Source of the DNA: Bacillota bacterium
Lineage (GTDB): Bacteria > Bacillota > Clostridia > Peptostreptococcales > Anaerovoracaceae
Assembly (NCBI GenBank): GCA_017397825.1
Contig: JAFQHT010000009.1
Span: 1 to 52,971 of the forward strand
Direction of reading: 5' to 3'
Length of the DNA stretch: 52,971 nucleotides
The translations under genes were made by a program, and so were the position numbers. How positions within the stretch are numbered: the first letter of the stretch is position 1; each line of letters begins with the position of its first letter. Below the pieces are notes generated by a model. It searched no databases. It had not been told where the DNA came from and saw only the letters and a list, made by a program, of their open reading frames with translations. Of this stretch, positions 527 through 40,767 are shown in pieces.

Positions 527-892
527 ATGCCAATTCCAAAAATACACGAAAGTGAATATCGTTTCTGCCTTATTATGTGGGAACATGAGCCTGTTACTGC
601 TGTAGAGCTTGTAAAGCTCTGCCAGAACCAGCTCGGTTGGAAACGCACCACAACCTACACAGTTATCAAACGTCTCGGGGAGCGCGGTGTGCTTCAGAAT
701 AATAACGGCACGGTCACTTCTCTGATTTCAAAGGACGAAGCTCAGGCCGGCGAAATTGAAGAACTTGTCGAAAAAAAATTCGGAGGTTCCCTCCCTGCTT
801 TCATTGCGGCCTTTACCCGCCATCAGGACATGTCCGATGATGAGCTTGATGAAATTCAGCACATGATTGACCGCATCAGAAAAGGAGAATAG
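527..892 (+). CDS. blaI: BlaI/MecI/CopY-family transcriptional repressor
   Basis: A 121-aa winged-helix repressor. The N-terminal half carries the recognition region of BlaI/MecI proteins (AVELVKLCQN, then KRTTTYTVIKRLGERG), and the C-terminal helices (residues 70-121) would form the dimerisation and protease-target segment. Such repressors sit on paired dyads until a partner M56 sensor protease triggers their cleavage; a matching M56 gene begins two bases after this stop codon. No beta-lactamase or penicillin-binding protein gene is seen in the window, so the controlled genes outside this operon are unknown. Confidence 0.88.
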   Translation: MPIPKIHESEYRFCLIMWEHEPVTAVELVKLCQNQLGWKRTTTYTVIKRLGERGVLQNNNGTVTSLISKDEAQAGEIEELVEKKFGGSLPAFIAAFTRHQDMSDDELDEIQHMIDRIRKGE

Positions 893-894
893 TA

Positions 895-2679
895 ATGAAC
901 ATGCTTTTCCTGAAAATTATAAATATGAGCATTGCTGCAAGCTGGCTTGTACTGGCCGTACTGGTACTCAGGCAGGTTATTAAAAAAGCCCCCAAGTGGG
1001 CCAATGTACTGCTTTGGGGAATTGTCGCAGTGCGTCTTGTCTGCCCTTTTTCTGTAGAAAGCGATTTCAGCCTGATTCCAAGCGCGCAGACTCTTCCCGA
1101 AAAATTAATTACAGGACCAAGTTTTGATGTCAATACAGGAATCCCGCCTGTGGATACGATGGTAAACGATTACCTTGGTGACCGGTATTTTGAAGGTGCC
1201 ACAGTTCCGGCAGATAATGGTGCCGATACCATGACAATCCTTGCAATTGTCTGGATTGCCGGCATATTGATTCTGGCAGCATATACACTGATCAGTTACA
1301 TCCGTATTCAGCGTCAGACTGAAACTGCTGTGCTGTACAACGAAAACATCTATCAGAGTGAAAATGTAAACTCACCTTTTGTTCTTGGAGTAGTCAGACC
1401 GAGGATATACCTGCCATTCAATATTGATGAACAGACTTTCAGGCATGTTGTGGCCCATGAACAGGCTCATATCAGCCGCAGAGACCACTGGTGGAAACCT
1501 TTCGGATTTCTGCTGCTTATGGTCCACTGGTTCAACCCTCTCATGTGGGTTGCTTACGCCCTTTTCTGCCGCGATATTGAACTGGCCTGCGATGAAAAAG
1601 TTATCAGGGAACTGGACAATCAGCAGCGCGCCGATTACTCCCAGGCACTTGTTTCATGCAGCATAAACCGGCCGGTGATAACTGCCTGCCCGCTGGCCTT
1701 CGGGGAAGTCAGCGTAAAGGACAGAGTCAGGTCCGTTATGAACTACAGAAAGCCAAAGTTCTGGATCGTGATTACGGCTGTAGTGCTTTGCATGGCGGCA
1801 GCGGTATGCTTTCTGACTGATCCGTTTGTGCCTTCAATCTATGATGTTTTTACATCAGGCAGGTACAACGTACTGAATCAGAAAGATATAAATCTGACAC
1901 TTTCAGTTCCAAAATCCAGCCTGCCGGAAAGCATCTACACCTCTGAAGGACATACTTTCAGCCCGGAAGAGGTCATCGCATATAAAGAAGACGGAACAGC
2001 CATTTACCTGCATAAGGCAATGCTTTCCAACGAAAATGATGACCTGCTGTACTTCTTCTTTGACTTTTCCCATGATTTCGGTAAATACGGCAGCTTCCCT
2101 TCGCCATACAAATATGTTCCAGGCCCTGACAGTATCCAGTCCCATCTGCTTCTTGCAAGCAGCGACCTTAAAGATATAAAAGGTATATATCCTGAAACAG
2201 TTTTCACACGCAGTTTCGGTCCCGGAACCCAGTTCGGCTTTTATGTGTCTAAGGATGCCTGCCGGAATGCTGTCGGAAATATTATGATTGATATAGCCTG
2301 CAACAGAGTTTTTTATGAAGAAAAAAGCAGAAAAAAAGAACTGGTCCATGGCGGCCTTAACGCTGAAATCGTTGAAATAGACCAGGATAACAGCATTCTG
2401 TATGTCAGAGATATCATCGAAAATATCGGCATCTTCGGCGACAGATGTGCCCTGGACTTAAACCGCGCAATGAGCAAGTTACAGCTTTTTTACGTAAATT
2501 ATGACAGTGGCCACCTGAAAGATATTGAATTTACAGACTTTCAGGTTGGCGATTCGATAATTATCTACCTGCGGGACAGTGAATTTAAAAAGGCACTTAA
2601 TAATACTGCTGTGGCAGAGCAGGTTCAGCTGGACACGCAGCGGATAAATGATTCTGAAAACAATCCACACACAATATAG
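895..2679 (+). CDS. BlaR1/MecR1-like M56 membrane metallopeptidase
   Basis: A 594-aa membrane protein. Hydrophobic helices lie near residues 8-26, 36-52, 113-133 and about 290-308. An M56 zinc-protease motif HEQAH is at residues 188-192, followed by a WFNPLMWVAY helix and the downstream ELACDE motif that provides the third zinc ligand. The C-terminal ~280 residues are extracytoplasmic and do not show the SxxK/SxN/KTG motifs of the beta-lactam sensor domain of true BlaR1, so the stimulus may be something other than a beta-lactam. It probably inactivates the BlaI encoded just upstream and is co-transcribed with it. Family assignment is firm; the ligand is unknown. Confidence 0.85.
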   Translation: MNMLFLKIINMSIAASWLVLAVLVLRQVIKKAPKWANVLLWGIVAVRLVCPFSVESDFSLIPSAQTLPEKLITGPSFDVNTGIPPVDTMVNDYLGDRYFEGATVPADNGADTMTILAIVWIAGILILAAYTLISYIRIQRQTETAVLYNENIYQSENVNSPFVLGVVRPRIYLPFNIDEQTFRHVVAHEQAHISRRDHWWKPFGFLLLMVHWFNPLMWVAYALFCRDIELACDEKVIRELDNQQRADYSQALVSCSINRPVITACPLAFGEVSVKDRVRSVMNYRKPKFWIVITAVVLCMAAAVCFLTDPFVPSIYDVFTSGRYNVLNQKDINLTLSVPKSSLPESIYTSEGHTFSPEEVIAYKEDGTAIYLHKAMLSNENDDLLYFFFDFSHDFGKYGSFPSPYKYVPGPDSIQSHLLLASSDLKDIKGIYPETVFTRSFGPGTQFGFYVSKDACRNAVGNIMIDIACNRVFYEEKSRKKELVHGGLNAEIVEIDQDNSILYVRDIIENIGIFGDRCALDLNRAMSKLQLFYVNYDSGHLKDIEFTDFQVGDSIIIYLRDSEFKKALNNTAVAEQVQLDTQRINDSENNPHTI

Positions 2680-2721: not shown

Positions 2722-3513
2722 TTATTCTCCATAATAAAAATTATAATTTATATCGTATCTCCAGCCCTCCATACCTTCCAGTACAGCCAGAGCCTCACTT
2801 GTGGCAATTATACGGCCATCTTCAAGCTCAAATGCGAAATTCTTCATATTATCAGAAATATATAGTTTCTGTTTTATACCCGTCTCTACAAGATTCATAC
2901 CATCGCGGTAATAGTAAATCTGTGGAAACCCGTTCATGCTTCCCTTATCCCACTTTATACTGGCAGTAAGTTTTTCATCTGCCGTAACAGGGAGTACCTC
3001 AACATGAAATTTCCCCCAGAAAGACTTGTTCCTACCATCTTTATAAGTGCCCTCCATATATATTTTCGTTTCGCCTGTCACCTTCCCATTTTCATATATG
3101 TCTGCCATCACTTCCTGACTGATGTTCTCAAGAAAAGCTCCCGAATAGTCCAACACTGCATACATCACAAACACTGACATAATCAGGCAAATTAAACCGG
3201 CAACTAAACTCACAATATTCCTGCGAACTTTTTGAATAGTCTGTCTGTAAACAAACTTCACAGCATTTCTCACTGCTTCGTCGTCTTTCGCTGCTTCTGC
3301 AGAATCCTGTTTGCCGCTTATCAGACATTGCATCGTGATTCCCAGCTCATCAGAAAGTGCCTCCAGCAAAGTCACATCAGGAAAACCTGCGCCCCTCTCC
3401 CACTTGCTGACTGCTCTGTCCGAAACATTAAGCCGGTCTGCCAGTTCTTTCTGTGTGTAACCCTTATTTTCTCTTGCCTCTTTTATTATAAGTCCTGTTC
3501 TCTTTATATCCAT
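2722..3513 (-). CDS. XRE-family helix-turn-helix regulator with membrane anchor
   Basis: A 263-aa protein. Residues 8-62 are a Cro/C1-type helix-turn-helix (YTQKELADRLNVSDRAVSKWERG, here quoted in part as KELADRLNVSDRAVSKWE). A single hydrophobic helix lies at about residues 100-122 and is followed by a ~140-residue extracytoplasmic or surface domain with many Tyr and Gly that I do not recognise. This suggests a one-component signal system in which an outer domain influences a DNA-binding domain. An extended -10 box (TGC-TATAAT, minus strand, 3552-3544) lies about 30 bases upstream. The target is unknown. Confidence 0.75.
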   Translation of the reverse strand: MDIKRTGLIIKEARENKGYTQKELADRLNVSDRAVSKWERGAGFPDVTLLEALSDELGITMQCLISGKQDSAEAAKDDEAVRNAVKFVYRQTIQKVRRNIVSLVAGLICLIMSVFVMYAVLDYSGAFLENISQEVMADIYENGKVTGETKIYMEGTYKDGRNKSFWGKFHVEVLPVTADEKLTASIKWDKGSMNGFPQIYYYRDGMNLVETGIKQKLYISDNMKNFAFELEDGRIIATSEALAVLEGMEGWRYDINYNFYYGE

Positions 3514-3642: not shown

Positions 3643-3651
3643 TGGTATAAT
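3643..3651 (+). promoter_or_regulatory. Extended -10 promoter of the small toxin gene
   Basis: TGG-TATAAT at 3643-3651 is an extended -10 element; no good -35 box is seen at 17 bases. The predicted start of transcription is near 3658. The mRNA would then open with CCTCC (3665-3669) able to pair with the GGAGG ribosome site (3678-3682), which would hide the site from ribosomes. Confidence 0.6.
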
Positions 3652-3689
3652 AGGGGTACTGCTTCCTCCCTTTGAAAGGAGGTGAACCG

Positions 3690-3776
3690 ATGCAAATACT
3701 TATACCCCTGATTGTCGCTGTCGCGGCAGATGTAGTCAGCTACTACATCTGCAAGTGGCTGGACAGAGACAAATAA
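3690..3776 (+). CDS. Fst-like type I toxin peptide (28 aa)
   Basis: A 28-residue peptide, MQILIPLIVAVAADVVSYYI then CKWLDRDK: one membrane-spanning helix and a short charged tail ending in KWLDRDK. This matches the build of Fst/Ldr-family toxins, which damage the cell membrane when made in excess. An AAAGGAGG site precedes the ATG at the right distance and can be masked by an upstream CCTCC. The gene ends just before a shared bidirectional terminator, and a convergent small RNA gene with a repeat of the start-codon region lies beyond it. Assignment rests on peptide shape plus this layout; toxicity is inferred. Confidence 0.75.
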   Translation: MQILIPLIVAVAADVVSYYICKWLDRDK

Positions 3777-3790
3777 AGCAGTCAGCCCAT

Positions 3791-3862
3791 GAAAAAACCC
3801 CGGAGCTGCAACTCCGGGGTTTTAAAGTTTTGCGATTTGATGCAATTCTTATACCCTTTATT
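3791..3862 (-). ncRNA. Predicted antisense antitoxin RNA of the Fst-like module
   Basis: A consensus minus-strand promoter (TTGACA-N17-TATAAT, 3897-3869) would start a short RNA near 3862 that ends at the shared terminator, about 70 nt in all. Its 5' part is the complement of 3839-3856, a repeat of the toxin start region: GATGCAA then CTTATACCC occurs at 3689-3707 around the ATG and again at 3839-3856 (16 identical positions). The RNA can therefore pair with the toxin start codon as well as the terminator loop. This is the RNA I/RNA II arrangement known from the pAD1 par system. No open reading frame is seen in it. Confidence 0.75.
3795..3822. terminator. Shared bidirectional terminator of toxin mRNA and antisense RNA
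   Basis: A perfect 11-bp stem: AAACCCCGGAG (3795-3805) with CTCCGGGGTTT (3812-3822) and a 6-base loop. An A-run on the left (3792-3797) gives a T-tract for leftward transcripts; T-rich sequence follows on the right. Confidence 0.88.
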
Positions 3863-3868
3863 GGTTAT

Positions 3869-3897
3869 ATTATATGGTTCTTTTACGCAATTGTCAA
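3869..3897 (-). promoter_or_regulatory. Consensus sigma-A promoter of the antisense RNA
   Basis: On the minus strand TTGACA (3897-3892), a 17-base spacer and TATAAT (3874-3869) match the consensus at all 12 positions. It sits downstream of the ileS stop codon and points at the toxin gene. Confidence 0.85.
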
Positions 3898-3948
3898 TAC
3901 TTTTACAGTTTTTTACTGTGCAATCGTTTATCGCGCAATCGCTTGCAG

Positions 3949-6900
3949 TTAGACACGTTCAACCTCAATACCAGACTTATGTCCGTTAAGGTCTGTCTTT
4001 GCTTCCAGTGTGTCAACGAATTCTACGGAAACTGCCAGAGTTTCGTTCTTGATGTAGTCTTCGTGCTTGCGGGCTGCAGCCTTTACAGCATCGTCGCATG
4101 TTACTGTAATCTTGATGTTATCCATCATTTCGAAATCGTACTGCTTACGGAGCTGCTGAACCTTGGAAATAAGTTCTCTTGCAAGACCTTCGTCGATGAG
4201 TTCGTCAGTTAAAGTAGTGTCGAGGATTGTGAAGATGTTGTTTTCCATTGCAACTGCGAAACCTTCCTTAGCTGCGATTCTGATGTCAACAAGATCTTTT
4301 GTTACTTCGAAAGTTTCACCGTCAAGGTCGATTGCAACCTTTCCTTCTGCTTCCATCTTGCCTACGAATTCAGCTGCATTAACCTTAGCCATTGCAGCGC
4401 CGAATGCCTTGACTTTGCTTCCAAGAACAGGACCTGCTGCTCTGAAGTTTGGCTTCAGGGAGAAGTTCATGTACTTGTCAAGTTCCTTTTCGAATACTAC
4501 CTTCTTAACGTTAAGTTCTTCCATGATTAATGGAGTAAGGTCGCTGATGATTGCTTCATACTTACCGTCAACGAGAACTTCGGAAAGAGGCTGTCTTACT
4601 TTGATTTTTTCTTTTTCACGTGTACCACGGCCCAGAGTTACCAGTGCTCTTACAAGGTCCATTCTTTCTTCAACACCCTTATCCACAAGGCTCATATCAG
4701 CCTTAGGGAAGTATGCAACGTGAACTGTTTCTTCGCCTGTAAGGTTAGTGTAGATTTCGTCGGAAAGGAATGGTGCAAACGGTGCGATGAGCTTTGCAAC
4801 GCCTACGAGAACTTCGTAAGTAGTTGCGTATGCACTCTTCTTGTCGTCTGTAAGTTCTTCTGCAAAGAATCTTCTTCTTGCACGTCTGATGTACCAGTTG
4901 GAAAGGTCTTCTGCAACGAAGTCAGTCATTGCTCTTACGCTCTTCATGTGGTCATACTGATCCATGTATTCAGTAACTTCCGCAACCAGACCGTTGAACT
5001 TGCTTAGGATCCATCTGTCAAGTTCAGGACGGTTTTCGTAAGGAACGTCCAGAGCCGCAGGATCCATGTTGTCCTGGTTGGAGTAAAGTACGAAGAAGTT
5101 GTATACGTTTCTCAGAGTTCCGAAGAACTTGGAAACTACGTCGATAAGGCCATCTTCGTCGAACTTTGTTGGTGACCATGCAGGTGATACGCTGAGCAGG
5201 TACCATCTTGTTGCGTCAGCACCGTACTTGTCGAAAAGTTCGAACGGAGATACAGTGTTGCCTCTGGACTTGGACATCTTCTTTCCTTCCTTGTCCAGGA
5301 TAAGGTCGTTAACCAGTACGTTCTTGTATGGAGCCTTGCCCATGATGAAAGTAGCGATTGCCATGAGGGAGTAGAACCATCCTCTTGTCTGGTCGATACC
5401 TTCGCAGATGAAGTCTGCAGGGAAAAGCTTGTCAAAGTTTTCTTTGTTTTCAAACGGATAGTGCCACTGTGCGAAAGGCATTGCACCGGAGTCGAACCAG
5501 CAGTCCATAACTTCCGGAATTCTGTGCATTTCCTTGCCGCAGTGAGGGCATGTAAGTGTTACATCATCAACATATGGTCTGTGGAGTTCGATAGTTTCAT
5601 CGATATCCTGGTTAGCCAGTTCCACAAGTTCTGCTCTTGAGCCTACGCAGTGAAGGTGGCCGCATTCGCATCTCCAGATAGGAATTGGAGTACCCCAGTA
5701 TCTTGAACGGGAAATTGCCCAGTCCTTAACTTCTGCAAGCCAGTTTCCGAAACGCTTTTCGCCTACGAAATCAGGGAACCAGTTAACAGTGTTGTTGTTT
5801 GCAACCAGCTGGTCTTTGAGCTTGGACATTTCAATGTACCAGGATGGCTTAGCATAGTATACTAATGGAGTGTTGCATCTCCAGCAGTGTGGATAGTTGT
5901 GCTCCATCTTTTCTTTCTTGAAAATCTTGTCGCCTTCTGCAAGGTACTTGATGATATCAACATCAAGACCTTCTTCCATTACGAAACGGCCGGCCCAAGG
6001 AGTTGCTGTGTAGCATCCGCTTTCGTCAACCGGCTGAAGTACAGGAAGGTTGTACTTACGTCCGCACTGATAGTCGTCTTCACCGAATGCAGGAGCTGTA
6101 TGAACGATACCAGTACCATCTTCAGTGGAAACGTAGTCCATGCAAGTTACGAAGAAAGCCTTCTTGTCAGCCTGTACGAATGGCATAAGCTGTTCGTATT
6201 CCATGTATTCAAGGGCAGAACCCTTCATTTCTTCAAGAACTTCGTACTTAGCACCGAGAACCTTGTCAGCAAGGCCCTTTGCCACGTAGAAGATATTGCC
6301 TTCGTTGTCGCCTTCAAGCATCTTAACCTTAACGTAATCAACGTCAGGACCAACTGTAAGAGCAACGTTGGAAGCCAGAGTCCAAGGAGTAGTAGTCCAT
6401 GCCAGGAAGTATTCGTTTTCTGCGCCGACTTTCTTGAACTTTACTGTGAGTGTGTTTACCTTTACCATCTTATAGCCCTGTGCTACTTCGTGGGAAGCAA
6501 GGCCTGTACCGCAGCGTGGGCAGTATGGAAGAATCTTGTGACCTTCGTAGATAAGGCCTGCGTCAAAGAATTTCTTTAAGATCCACCAGCCGGACTCGAT
6601 GTAGTTGTTGTCCAGAGTGATGTATGGATCGTCAAGGTCCACAAGGTAACCCATTCTTTCAGTCATATCTCTCCACATGTCAGTGTAAGTGAAAACTGAT
6701 TCTCTGCACTTCTGGTTGAATTCTTTGATACCGTATTTTTCGATGTCCTTCTTGCCGGACATATTGAGCTGCTTTTCAACTTCGATTTCTACAGGAAGAC
6801 CGTGTGTGTCCCATCCTGCTTTTCTGTTTACCTGGAATCCCTGCATTGTCTTGTAACGGCAGATGGAGTCCTTTAAAGTTCTTGCCATAACATGGTGGAT

Positions 6901-7062
6901 GCCTGGCTTACCGTTTGCTGTAGGAGGTCCTTCATAGAAAATGAACGGAGTAGCTCCTTCTCTTGCTGTTACGCATTTTGTGAGCAGATCTTCTTCTTTC
7001 CACTTGGCAACCTGCTCGTTCTGAACCTCTGCGATTGGTTTTTCTGATAGATTCTTGAACAT
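3949..7062 (-). CDS. ileS: Isoleucyl-tRNA synthetase, type 2 (IleRS2)
   Basis: A 1037-aa class I synthetase that charges tRNA-Ile in the cytoplasm. The nucleotide-binding signature is GIHH at residues 54-57 (context NGKPGIHHVMA) in place of HIGH; the second signature is KMSKS (GKKMSKSRGN). Two Cys pairs (CECGHLHC and CPHCG) lie around residues 460-515. Length and N-terminal context fit the type 2 family rather than the E. coli-like type 1. GXHH variants of type 2 enzymes are reported to be hyper-resistant to mupirocin. A T-box leader precedes the gene, so expression should rise when uncharged tRNA-Ile accumulates. It is the only ileS in the window. Confidence 0.97.
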   Translation of the reverse strand: MFKNLSEKPIAEVQNEQVAKWKEEDLLTKCVTAREGATPFIFYEGPPTANGKPGIHHVMARTLKDSICRYKTMQGFQVNRKAGWDTHGLPVEIEVEKQLNMSGKKDIEKYGIKEFNQKCRESVFTYTDMWRDMTERMGYLVDLDDPYITLDNNYIESGWWILKKFFDAGLIYEGHKILPYCPRCGTGLASHEVAQGYKMVKVNTLTVKFKKVGAENEYFLAWTTTPWTLASNVALTVGPDVDYVKVKMLEGDNEGNIFYVAKGLADKVLGAKYEVLEEMKGSALEYMEYEQLMPFVQADKKAFFVTCMDYVSTEDGTGIVHTAPAFGEDDYQCGRKYNLPVLQPVDESGCYTATPWAGRFVMEEGLDVDIIKYLAEGDKIFKKEKMEHNYPHCWRCNTPLVYYAKPSWYIEMSKLKDQLVANNNTVNWFPDFVGEKRFGNWLAEVKDWAISRSRYWGTPIPIWRCECGHLHCVGSRAELVELANQDIDETIELHRPYVDDVTLTCPHCGKEMHRIPEVMDCWFDSGAMPFAQWHYPFENKENFDKLFPADFICEGIDQTRGWFYSLMAIATFIMGKAPYKNVLVNDLILDKEGKKMSKSRGNTVSPFELFDKYGADATRWYLLSVSPAWSPTKFDEDGLIDVVSKFFGTLRNVYNFFVLYSNQDNMDPAALDVPYENRPELDRWILSKFNGLVAEVTEYMDQYDHMKSVRAMTDFVAEDLSNWYIRRARRRFFAEELTDDKKSAYATTYEVLVGVAKLIAPFAPFLSDEIYTNLTGEETVHVAYFPKADMSLVDKGVEERMDLVRALVTLGRGTREKEKIKVRQPLSEVLVDGKYEAIISDLTPLIMEELNVKKVVFEKELDKYMNFSLKPNFRAAGPVLGSKVKAFGAAMAKVNAAEFVGKMEAEGKVAIDLDGETFEVTKDLVDIRIAAKEGFAVAMENNIFTILDTTLTDELIDEGLARELISKVQQLRKQYDFEMMDNIKITVTCDDAVKAAARKHEDYIKNETLAVSVEFVDTLEAKTDLNGHKSGIEVERV

Positions 7063-35180: not shown

Positions 35181-35224
35181 TTTGTCCTCCTAAATCTTTT
35201 TTGGGGATTATGAGGTCTGAAAAG

Positions 35225-35345
35225 GTAACAGAATCTCTTTTCAAACACGGAAGGCAATTTCCTTTCGGAAAGAACCCTGCGGCAACCCTGCCATGGCACG
35301 CCTCACGGCGGACTTTAGGCAGAACAGCTCGAAATCCTCTTAGTT
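35225..35345 (-). promoter_or_regulatory. Moco/Tuco riboswitch-like leader of tupABC-moeA
   Basis: The minus strand between moaA and tupA holds blocks in the same order as the E. coli moaA Moco RNA: GCCGUGA (a CGCC-GUGA-GGCG GNRA hairpin), GUUGCCGCAGGG, a UUUCC-GAAA-GGAA hairpin, then GCCUUCCGUGUUUGAAAAG, close to the E. coli 3' part. No intrinsic terminator with a U-run follows before the tupA ribosome site, so translation control is the simpler model. Whether it reads the Mo or the W cofactor cannot be told; the gene it controls favours W. Limits are approximate. Confidence 0.75.
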
Positions 35346-35390
35346 TTTATTGTCGGTTTTGGGTATTAAATTTTTATATTCTTACAGGAA

Positions 35391-40570: not shown

Positions 40571-40767
40571 AAAAAAGCACTGAAACAAAGGCACGCAAAA
40601 CGCGTACTTATTTCAATGCACTCCTTCGCAAAATGGCAAGCAATGCCGTTCCCAGCATTACTCATTGGCTTCTGTCGCCCATGTGTTTTTATGTTGTCTG
40701 TCTCTTCACCTTTACATGCTGCCCCACATGTCGGCTGGCAGAGCTCGGAGAATATTTCATTTTTATA
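40571..40767 (-). promoter_or_regulatory. Long structured leader with terminator ahead of ADH-AOR (candidate riboswitch)
   Basis: From the promoter start near 40767 to the gene there are about 225 nt. The leader ends in a strong terminator: GCATTGAAA..TACGC pairs with GCGTG..GTTTCAGTGC and is followed by six T (40576-40571). Upstream are several helices, including CUGCC...GGCAG, AAUGC...GCAUU and a CAUGU/GCAUGUAAAGGUG block. I could not assign it to a known class with confidence; a variant Moco/Tuco RNA is one idea, given the AOR genes behind it. The region from 40571 to 40848 holds no gene. Confidence 0.65.

What the first reader, a model, noticed from the sequence alone, without database searches (positions are those of the whole stretch)
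3643..3897. Chromosomal Fst/par-type type I toxin-antitoxin module with all parts visible
Within 255 bases lie a 28-aa hydrophobic peptide gene, a ribosome site that can be masked by an upstream CCTCC, a perfect 11-bp bidirectional terminator, and a convergent consensus promoter (TTGACA-N17-TATAAT) with no ORF behind it. The toxin start region (GATGCAA..CTTATACCC, 3689-3707) is repeated at 3839-3856, so the predicted ~70-nt antisense RNA can pair with the toxin start codon. This is the RNA I/RNA II logic of the pAD1 par system, here on a chromosome next to ileS.
Basis: partly seen in the sequence, partly recalled or inferred. Interest (0 to 1): 0.85.

Follow-up and report, generated by a model that had tools for sequence, protein, structure and literature searches.

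The report
Par-type toxin and antisense-RNA module
A tiny toxin-like membrane peptide gene in a gut bacterium faces a predicted small antisense RNA that can block its start codon; the layout resembles a known plasmid addiction system, but the peptide belongs to a sister group whose message carries a hairpin inside the coding region.

Summary
At 3643-3897 lie a 28-codon membrane-peptide ORF with an extended -10 promoter, a masked ribosome site, a bidirectional terminator (12 bp, not 11), the window's only perfect TTGACA-N17-TATAAT, and a start-codon repeat beyond the terminator. The layout recurs around a YYICKWLD peptide family in Bacillota genomes, plasmids and viral contigs. Start-site repeats match within loci, not between them: score 12 or more in 70 of 110 loci against 3 of 1650 cross-locus pairs; antisense promoters of 10/12 or better in 70 of 110 against 37 of 550 shuffles. 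Predicted antisense pairing is locus-specific. So this is par (RNA I/RNA II) logic. The peptide is a sister group of Fst, not Fst proper: no NCBIfam Fst hit, and AxxxD at the PxxxG position. New here: a hairpin inside the toxin ORF (3726-3752), backed by covariation at three predicted codon pairs (p 4e-8 to 2e-11 in 101 segments, about 2e-7 in 65 further ones). The ileS site is occupied in two of four genus members where ileS was found, empty in two. Transcripts and toxicity are inferred, not shown.

The parts
3643..3651 (+). extended -10 (TGnTATAAT) of the toxin promoter, weak -35
   Evidence: TGn before the best -10 in 67 of 95 family loci that have a -10 of 5/6 or better (of 108 tested), against 29 of 329 shuffled
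3658..3664 (+). 5' arm of the 5'-3' helix (ACTGCTT, pairs with 3776-3782) at the predicted mRNA 5' end
   Evidence: folds in the MFE; 7 bp. Family-wide signal weak
3665..3682 (+). CCTCC...AGGAGG stem-loop masking the Shine-Dalgarno (3677-3682)
   Evidence: MFE fold; perfect 5-nt complement upstream of the SD in 21 of 100 family loci against 5.2% in shuffles
3690..3776 (+). toxin-like 28-codon ORF, one hydrophobic segment, YYICKWLD, charged tail
   Evidence: family alignment A1
3689..3707 (+). repeat copy A over the start codon
   Evidence: cross-locus control
3726..3752 (+). hairpin inside the ORF: 11-bp arms 3726-3736 and 3742-3752, loop 3737-3741
   Evidence: MFE fold; coordinates; covariation
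3776..3782 (+). 3' arm of the 5'-3' helix (AAGCAGT)
3794..3823 (.). bidirectional terminator, 12-bp perfect stem, 6-nt loop
   Evidence: stems of 8 bp or more in 82 of 110 family loci against 3 of 330 shuffles; scanner found none
3792..3862 (-). predicted 71-nt antisense RNA (antitoxin)
   Evidence: inferred from promoter and terminator; fold z -4.7
3839..3856 (-). repeat copy B, giving the antisense RNA its start-codon complement
   Evidence: predicted duplex -28.3 kcal/mol
3869..3897 (-). antisense promoter TTGACA-N17-TATAAT
   Evidence: family statistics

Best explanation
A type I toxin-antitoxin module that works like par of pAD1. A weak extended -10 promoter makes a ~165-nt mRNA for a 28-aa single-span membrane peptide. 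The mRNA is kept quiet by its own folding (masked Shine-Dalgarno, 5'-3' helix, hairpin inside the ORF). A consensus promoter facing it makes a ~71-nt antisense RNA that shares the terminator and carries a diverged copy of the start region; it pairs with the terminator stem-loop and then over the start codon, blocking translation. The repeat is a private address, so several copies in one genome do not cross-silence. If antisense supply falls (loss of the locus, or slowed transcription), the peptide is made and harms the cell's own membrane. Shown by sequence comparison: ORF, promoter sites, terminator, locus-specific repeat, ORF hairpin. Inferred: transcripts, order of pairing, toxicity, trigger.
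For: Anatomy. Same-locus repeats: score 12 or more in 70 of 110 loci, 3 of 1650 cross-locus pairs. Antisense promoter 10/12 or better in 70 of 110, perfect in 19 of 110; shuffles 37 and 0 of 550; random segments 22 and 1 of 485; sense strand 8 and 0 of 110. Duplex matrix: nine loci that keep a repeat give -23.7 to -30.7 kcal/mol with themselves, the other pairings -7.9 to -22.3, orthologues -26.9 and -30.5. 12 of 12 fetched plasmid and phage copies keep a repeat of score 11-19, and 7 of 12 an antisense promoter of 10/12 or better. Nine annotated Fst loci show the same layout by a like test: repeat of 13 or more in 8 of 9, antisense promoter 10/12 in 6 of 9.
Against: No expression or toxicity data. 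The loci are related, so counts are not independent events. 21 of 110 loci score under 9 for the repeat and 40 of 110 have an antisense promoter under 10/12. The Fst residues PxxxG, reported essential for FstpAD1 toxicity (PMC7472228, section read), are A and D here. SD masking by a perfect 5-mer is seen in only 21 of 100 loci. The simple terminator scan found none. The plasmid, phage and viral sets had no cross-locus control of their own.
Confidence: 0.88

Rival explanations
1. A non-toxic regulatory membrane peptide under antisense control: same RNA logic, but the peptide modulates a membrane partner rather than harming the cell.
For: PxxxG, reported essential in Fst, is absent; the peptide is kept unchanged between two species.
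Against: Copies on small plasmids and viral contigs and several private-address copies per genome fit addiction modules; in the same-genus genome G001 two copies (L011, L013) without cognate pairing look decayed.
Confidence: 0.08
2. Ordinary 3' end of ileS: the minus promoter and terminator serve ileS or the XRE-type gene at 2722-3513, and the ORF is chance.
For: ileS (3949-7062) and the XRE-type gene both lie on the minus strand, on either side (gene names by eye); by eye I see no other terminator between ileS and the module.
Against: The module is absent from the sequence held behind ileS in two related species, recurs on plasmids and other contigs, and its repeat is locus-specific.
Confidence: 0.02
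3. The peptide is an Fst-family toxin in the strict sense, only too diverged for the models.
For: Profile-profile 90.8% probability over 31 columns against 11 Fst peptides, 0 of 100 column shuffles as good; 1 of the 32 aligned members passes the NCBIfam Fst cut-off (30.9 over 26 bits); a viral-contig peptide (L237) carries P at the Fst position together with YYICKWLD.
Against: With the WLD tail kept and only the membrane columns shuffled, 3 of 100 do as well, so much of the signal is the tail; the window peptide has no NCBIfam hit; the other 31 members miss the Fst cut-off and so does L237 (no Fst hit); 0 of 110 have P at the motif position; 0 of 149 phylum genomes, G000 among them, are over the cut-off.
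Confidence: 0.35

Closest known systems
par of pAD1 (RNA I/RNA II, Fst)
   Same: Convergent promoters, shared bidirectional terminator, start-codon repeats in both RNAs, SD stem-loop, 5' helix, Trp position at the membrane exit and charged tail (PMC7472228, sections 3, 4, 6 and legends read).
   Different: Toxin has YYICKWLD, and A or (in the family) S at the P position; no YUNR in the terminator loop (CUGCAA); antisense ~71 nt predicted rather than ~40.
fst-Sm/srSm of the Streptococcus mutans chromosome
   Same: Chromosomal, formerly unannotated peptide of ~30 aa, ~70-nt antitoxin RNA, repeats over the start codon (PMC3543317, passages read).
Fst- and Ldr/Fst-like sequences of Clostridium bolteae and C. 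asparagiforme
   Same: Earlier in-silico hits in Clostridia (PMC6563280, passage read; a paper I tried by a recalled DOI as the likely source is not held).
   Different: Their letters were not seen, so whether they are this group is unknown.
C. difficile type I toxins (NF047374; CD0956.2/RCd10 and kin)
   Same: Convergent type I modules in Clostridia (PMC6563280, passages); 15 of 32 members match weakly.
   Different: 34-53 aa with lysine-rich tails; best score seen 21.3 bits against a cut-off of 60.

Membership tests
par-like type I TA module (architecture) | convergent promoters | tested here: met
   sequence sites only; no transcript data
par-like type I TA module (architecture) | shared bidirectional terminator | tested here: met
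   12-bp stem; 82 of 110 loci with stems of 8 bp or more; the scanner found none
par-like type I TA module (architecture) | direct repeats giving complementarity over the start codon | tested here: met
par-like type I TA module (architecture) | SD-masking stem-loop and 5' upstream helix in the toxin RNA | tested here: met
   present in the window fold; only weakly general in the family
par-like type I TA module (architecture) | YUNR U-turn in the toxin-RNA terminator loop | tested here: not met
   loop 3806-3811 reads CUGCAA (from coordinates); the review says not all homologues have it
par-like type I TA module (architecture) | antisense RNA neutralises a toxic peptide | not testable with these tools
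   needs expression
Fst/Ldr superfamily (toxin) | Trp between hydrophobic segment and charged tail | tested here: met
   W23; invariant in the 32 sequences of alignment A1
Fst/Ldr superfamily (toxin) | P/D/S/TxxxG motif (majority of members) | tested here: not met
   window AVAAD; 30 of 110 family loci have P/D/S/TxxxG, none with P
NCBIfam NF033608 type_I_tox_Fst | score over the 26-bit cut-off | tested here: not met
   window no hit; 4 of 32 members match at E 10 or better, 1 of 32 over the cut-off when each was looked at
NCBIfam NF047374 CD_typeI_toxin | score over the 60-bit cut-off | tested here: not met
   window no hit; best seen 21.3 bits

The most novel reading that the evidence does not exclude
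The toxin ORF is dual-coded: the conserved A-x-[VI]-[VI]-x-Y-Y-I-C stretch is kept not only for the membrane peptide but because its mRNA must fold into a hairpin (window 3726-3752), a regulatory element of the toxin message throughout this sister group and possibly, as a shorter 6-bp form, in classical Fst mRNAs. It may hold the nascent mRNA silent or stable until antisense RNA pairs.
Probability: 0.6. Interest if true: 0.7.

Novelty: new variant of a known kind. Interest (0 to 1): 0.55.

Why it matters
The NCBIfam Fst model passes only 1 of 32 members looked at, and none of the ten plasmid copies fetched has a gene annotated at the peptide (that gene table is incomplete), so annotation tends to skip this group. 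With 2 to 10 matches in several genomes and locus-specific repeats, it is a natural test of how antisense RNAs keep specificity. The covarying hairpin inside the ORF is a testable control element, and lets one ask whether conserved residues of type I toxins are kept for the peptide or for the RNA.

Tried and rejected
Rfam: no family at gathering score over the module; with the lax threshold only sub-threshold hits, best E 0.0053 for SpF66_sRNA at 20.6 bits against a cut-off of 42, not used. PDB profile search: nothing up to E 10. Pfam: only weak hits, best E 0.0012 (a phage holin family, 10 of 32 members), Ldr_toxin in 5 of 32, best E 0.044. PHROG phrog_738 (no function) matches 29 of 32 members, best E 4.4e-6. 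SD masking and 5'-3' pairing as family-wide rules: signals real but weak (5'-3' median -14.2 against -12.4 kcal/mol), so kept as features of the window only. Base composition as cause of the hairpin signal: made unlikely because codon pairs slid by one and a Lys control show little or no association (p 0.03, 0.65, 1.0; 0.28 to 0.41). The motif in print: a search of the held library for YICKW, ICKWLD and YYICK found 3 unrelated papers; figures, supplements and most subscription journals are not covered.

Rows dropped: the first layout script did not turn minus-strand loci and was replaced. One search left out loci too near a contig end and then 4 of 114 loci with a short open frame (L017, L029, L066, L126), leaving 110 matches in 108 loci, L001 and L002 among them. 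These were not curated further: at least one chance match (L056, Planktothrix) remains, two (L122, L128) are G001's own, and some are near-duplicates; they give 101 distinct 27-nt segments. Alignment A2 holds 61 of the 65 further segments plus the window: three with a shifted register (L014, L159, L198) left out on purpose and one (L243) by oversight; the tests used all 65.

Full report
What is there. The plus strand has TGGTATAAT at 3643-3651, a leader with CCTCC (3665-3669) opposite AGGAGG (3677-3682), and a 28-codon ORF at 3690-3776. The shared terminator has a perfect 12-bp stem (3794-3805 with 3812-3823). The minus strand has TTGACA-N17-TATAAT at 3897-3869, the only perfect copy in the window. 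The start region 3689-3707 recurs at 3839-3856. Folds are stronger than 200 shuffles each: mRNA z -5.7, antisense z -4.7. The scanner's terminator rule found nothing here, which I attribute to its counting the T tract as stem.

Relatives in the genus. The same genome holds a second copy (G000:C7, 48% identical peptide) with a quite different repeat, a perfect 14-mer, and again a perfect antisense promoter. Of six genus members searched, the window's own included, three (G000, G001, G005) have convincing hits; G002 has only one, at E 0.38 with a stop inside, and G003 and G004 have none. G001 has an orthologue and seven further hits at E 0.003 or better, plus one at E 0.55 in a 510-aa frame. G001 appears to be the goat-rectum Bacillota MAG RGIG3020: contig JAFSCP010000046.1 has the same length as G001:C45 and the same peptide. 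Two of its copies (L011, L013) lack a cognate repeat, and in L014 the ATG behind the ribosome site is in another frame than the motif; these three keep an antisense promoter of 12, 11 and 12 of 12.

Site. Behind ileS, G001 (98% identical over the 333 residues searched) has the module; G002 and G005 (86%) do not, in the roughly 420 and 1170 bases held; G003 and G004 gave no ileS match. So the place is lineage-specific.

Family. In 110 testable matches the repeat scored 12 or more in 70, against 3 of 1650 cross-locus pairs; at 9 or more it was 89 of 110 against 108 of 1650. Antisense promoters scored 10/12 or better in 70 of 110, against 37 of 550 shuffles, 22 of 485 random segments and 8 of 110 on the sense strand. 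Terminator stems of 8 bp or more were found in 82 of 110 against 3 of 330 shuffles. The set is related and not curated (see Tried and rejected), so the numbers overstate independence. Searches of sampled genomes found hits in 18 of 398 of the phylum at E 0.01 and 20 of 391 of the class at E 0.001, a few of them weak.

Mobile copies. tblastn found 392 plasmid records (330 Enterococcus) and 12 phage records up to E 10; many are weak by E-value, and two phage hits lie in tail-fibre genes. I fetched ten plasmid and two phage copies: 12 of 12 have a same-locus repeat of score 11-19, and 7 of 12 an antisense promoter of 10/12 or better. Of 30 viral-contig loci tested (of 32; two at contig edges), 27 have a repeat of 10 or more; one of the other three (L229) is not the family. 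These sets had no cross-locus control. Small tandem arrays occur; in L214 three neighbouring units each match their own repeat best.

Addresses. Predicted duplexes between the antisense 5' 42 nt and start regions were -23.7 to -30.7 kcal/mol for the nine loci that keep a repeat, -7.9 to -22.3 for the other pairings, and -26.9 and -30.5 between the two orthologues; L011 and L013 gave -15.2 and -12.0 with themselves. This predicts private silencing; it was not measured.

Hairpin in the ORF. The window's fold pairs 3726-3736 with 3742-3752, codons 13 to 21. If real, the third bases of residues 18, 19 and 20 should follow the first bases of codons 16, 15 and 14. In 101 distinct segments they do: p 4e-8, 2e-11 and 1e-10, with controls at 1.0, 0.65 and 0.03. 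In 65 further distinct segments p is about 2e-7 for each, with four slid controls at 0.28-0.41. Over the whole hairpin, 88.4% of cells pair in the first set and 89.5% in the second, against shuffled maxima of 86.2 and 85.9 in 1000; the margin is modest because many positions are fixed by the peptide. A pair count on 62 sequences gives 59 double-changed cells against a shuffled mean of 25.1 (0 of 500 reach it); sliding the partner gives 0-24. Its two coarser measures are weaker: 5 pairs with a double change (33 of 500 shuffles reach it) and 15 further pair types (27 of 500). Phylogeny is not removed, but it should affect slid pairs as well. Nine classical Fst loci show a hairpin of 4-6 Watson-Crick pairs near the same place; too few to prove. 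The Fst papers I opened describe the 5' helix, the SD stem-loop and the terminator but, in the sections and passages seen, no ORF hairpin; their structure figures are not held. One search for such a report listed 3 papers, none holding the word Fst (listing only); one of them concerns structures in another type I toxin mRNA (PMC6733600).

Relation to Fst. The review defines the superfamily by a Trp between membrane helix and charged tail, most members with P/D/S/TxxxG. The window peptide has the Trp and the tail but AxxxD. In the family S is at that position in 94 of 110, and 30 of 110 fit P/D/S/TxxxG. NCBIfam Fst: none for the window, 4 of 32 members at all, 1 of 32 over the cut-off. Profile-profile gives 90.8%, 0 of 100 full-core shuffles and 3 of 100 membrane-only shuffles as good; direct matching of the two published Fst peptides to the family model is very weak (4.3 and -0.2 bits). 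I therefore call it a sister group that works like par, not a member of Fst proper.

How it most likely works. Given in the best explanation; the toxic action and the trigger are inference. One extra idea: since I see by eye no other terminator between ileS and the module, ileS transcripts may run into it and add antisense sequence; untested.

Noticed in passing
window 35218-35346 and 40605-40762, minus strand: Two molybdenum-cofactor riboswitch matches (RF01055, 58.9 and 37.6 bits, both over the gathering score).
   Followed up: no
window 527-2679, plus strand: A 121-aa ORF followed by a 594-aa ORF that look like a BlaI-type repressor and an M56/BlaR1-type membrane protease (names recalled, not searched).
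   Followed up: no
L011, L013, L014 (same-genus genome G001): Copies without cognate repeat pairing (L011, L013) or with the motif out of frame from the ATG (L014) still keep an antisense promoter of 11 or 12 of 12.
   Followed up: partly
L213, L214, L215: Neighbouring copies of the module with different repeats per unit; three units in L214 each match their own repeat best.
   Followed up: partly
L196, L197 (Enterococcus faecium plasmids): A relative with HYICKWLD and a longer tail and its own start repeat; no gene is listed there in the two records, and 330 of the 392 plasmid records matched up to E 10 are Enterococcus.
   Followed up: partly
window 3875-3949, minus strand: No obvious terminator between the ileS stop and the module, so ileS transcripts may end at the module's terminator (read by eye).
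   Followed up: no
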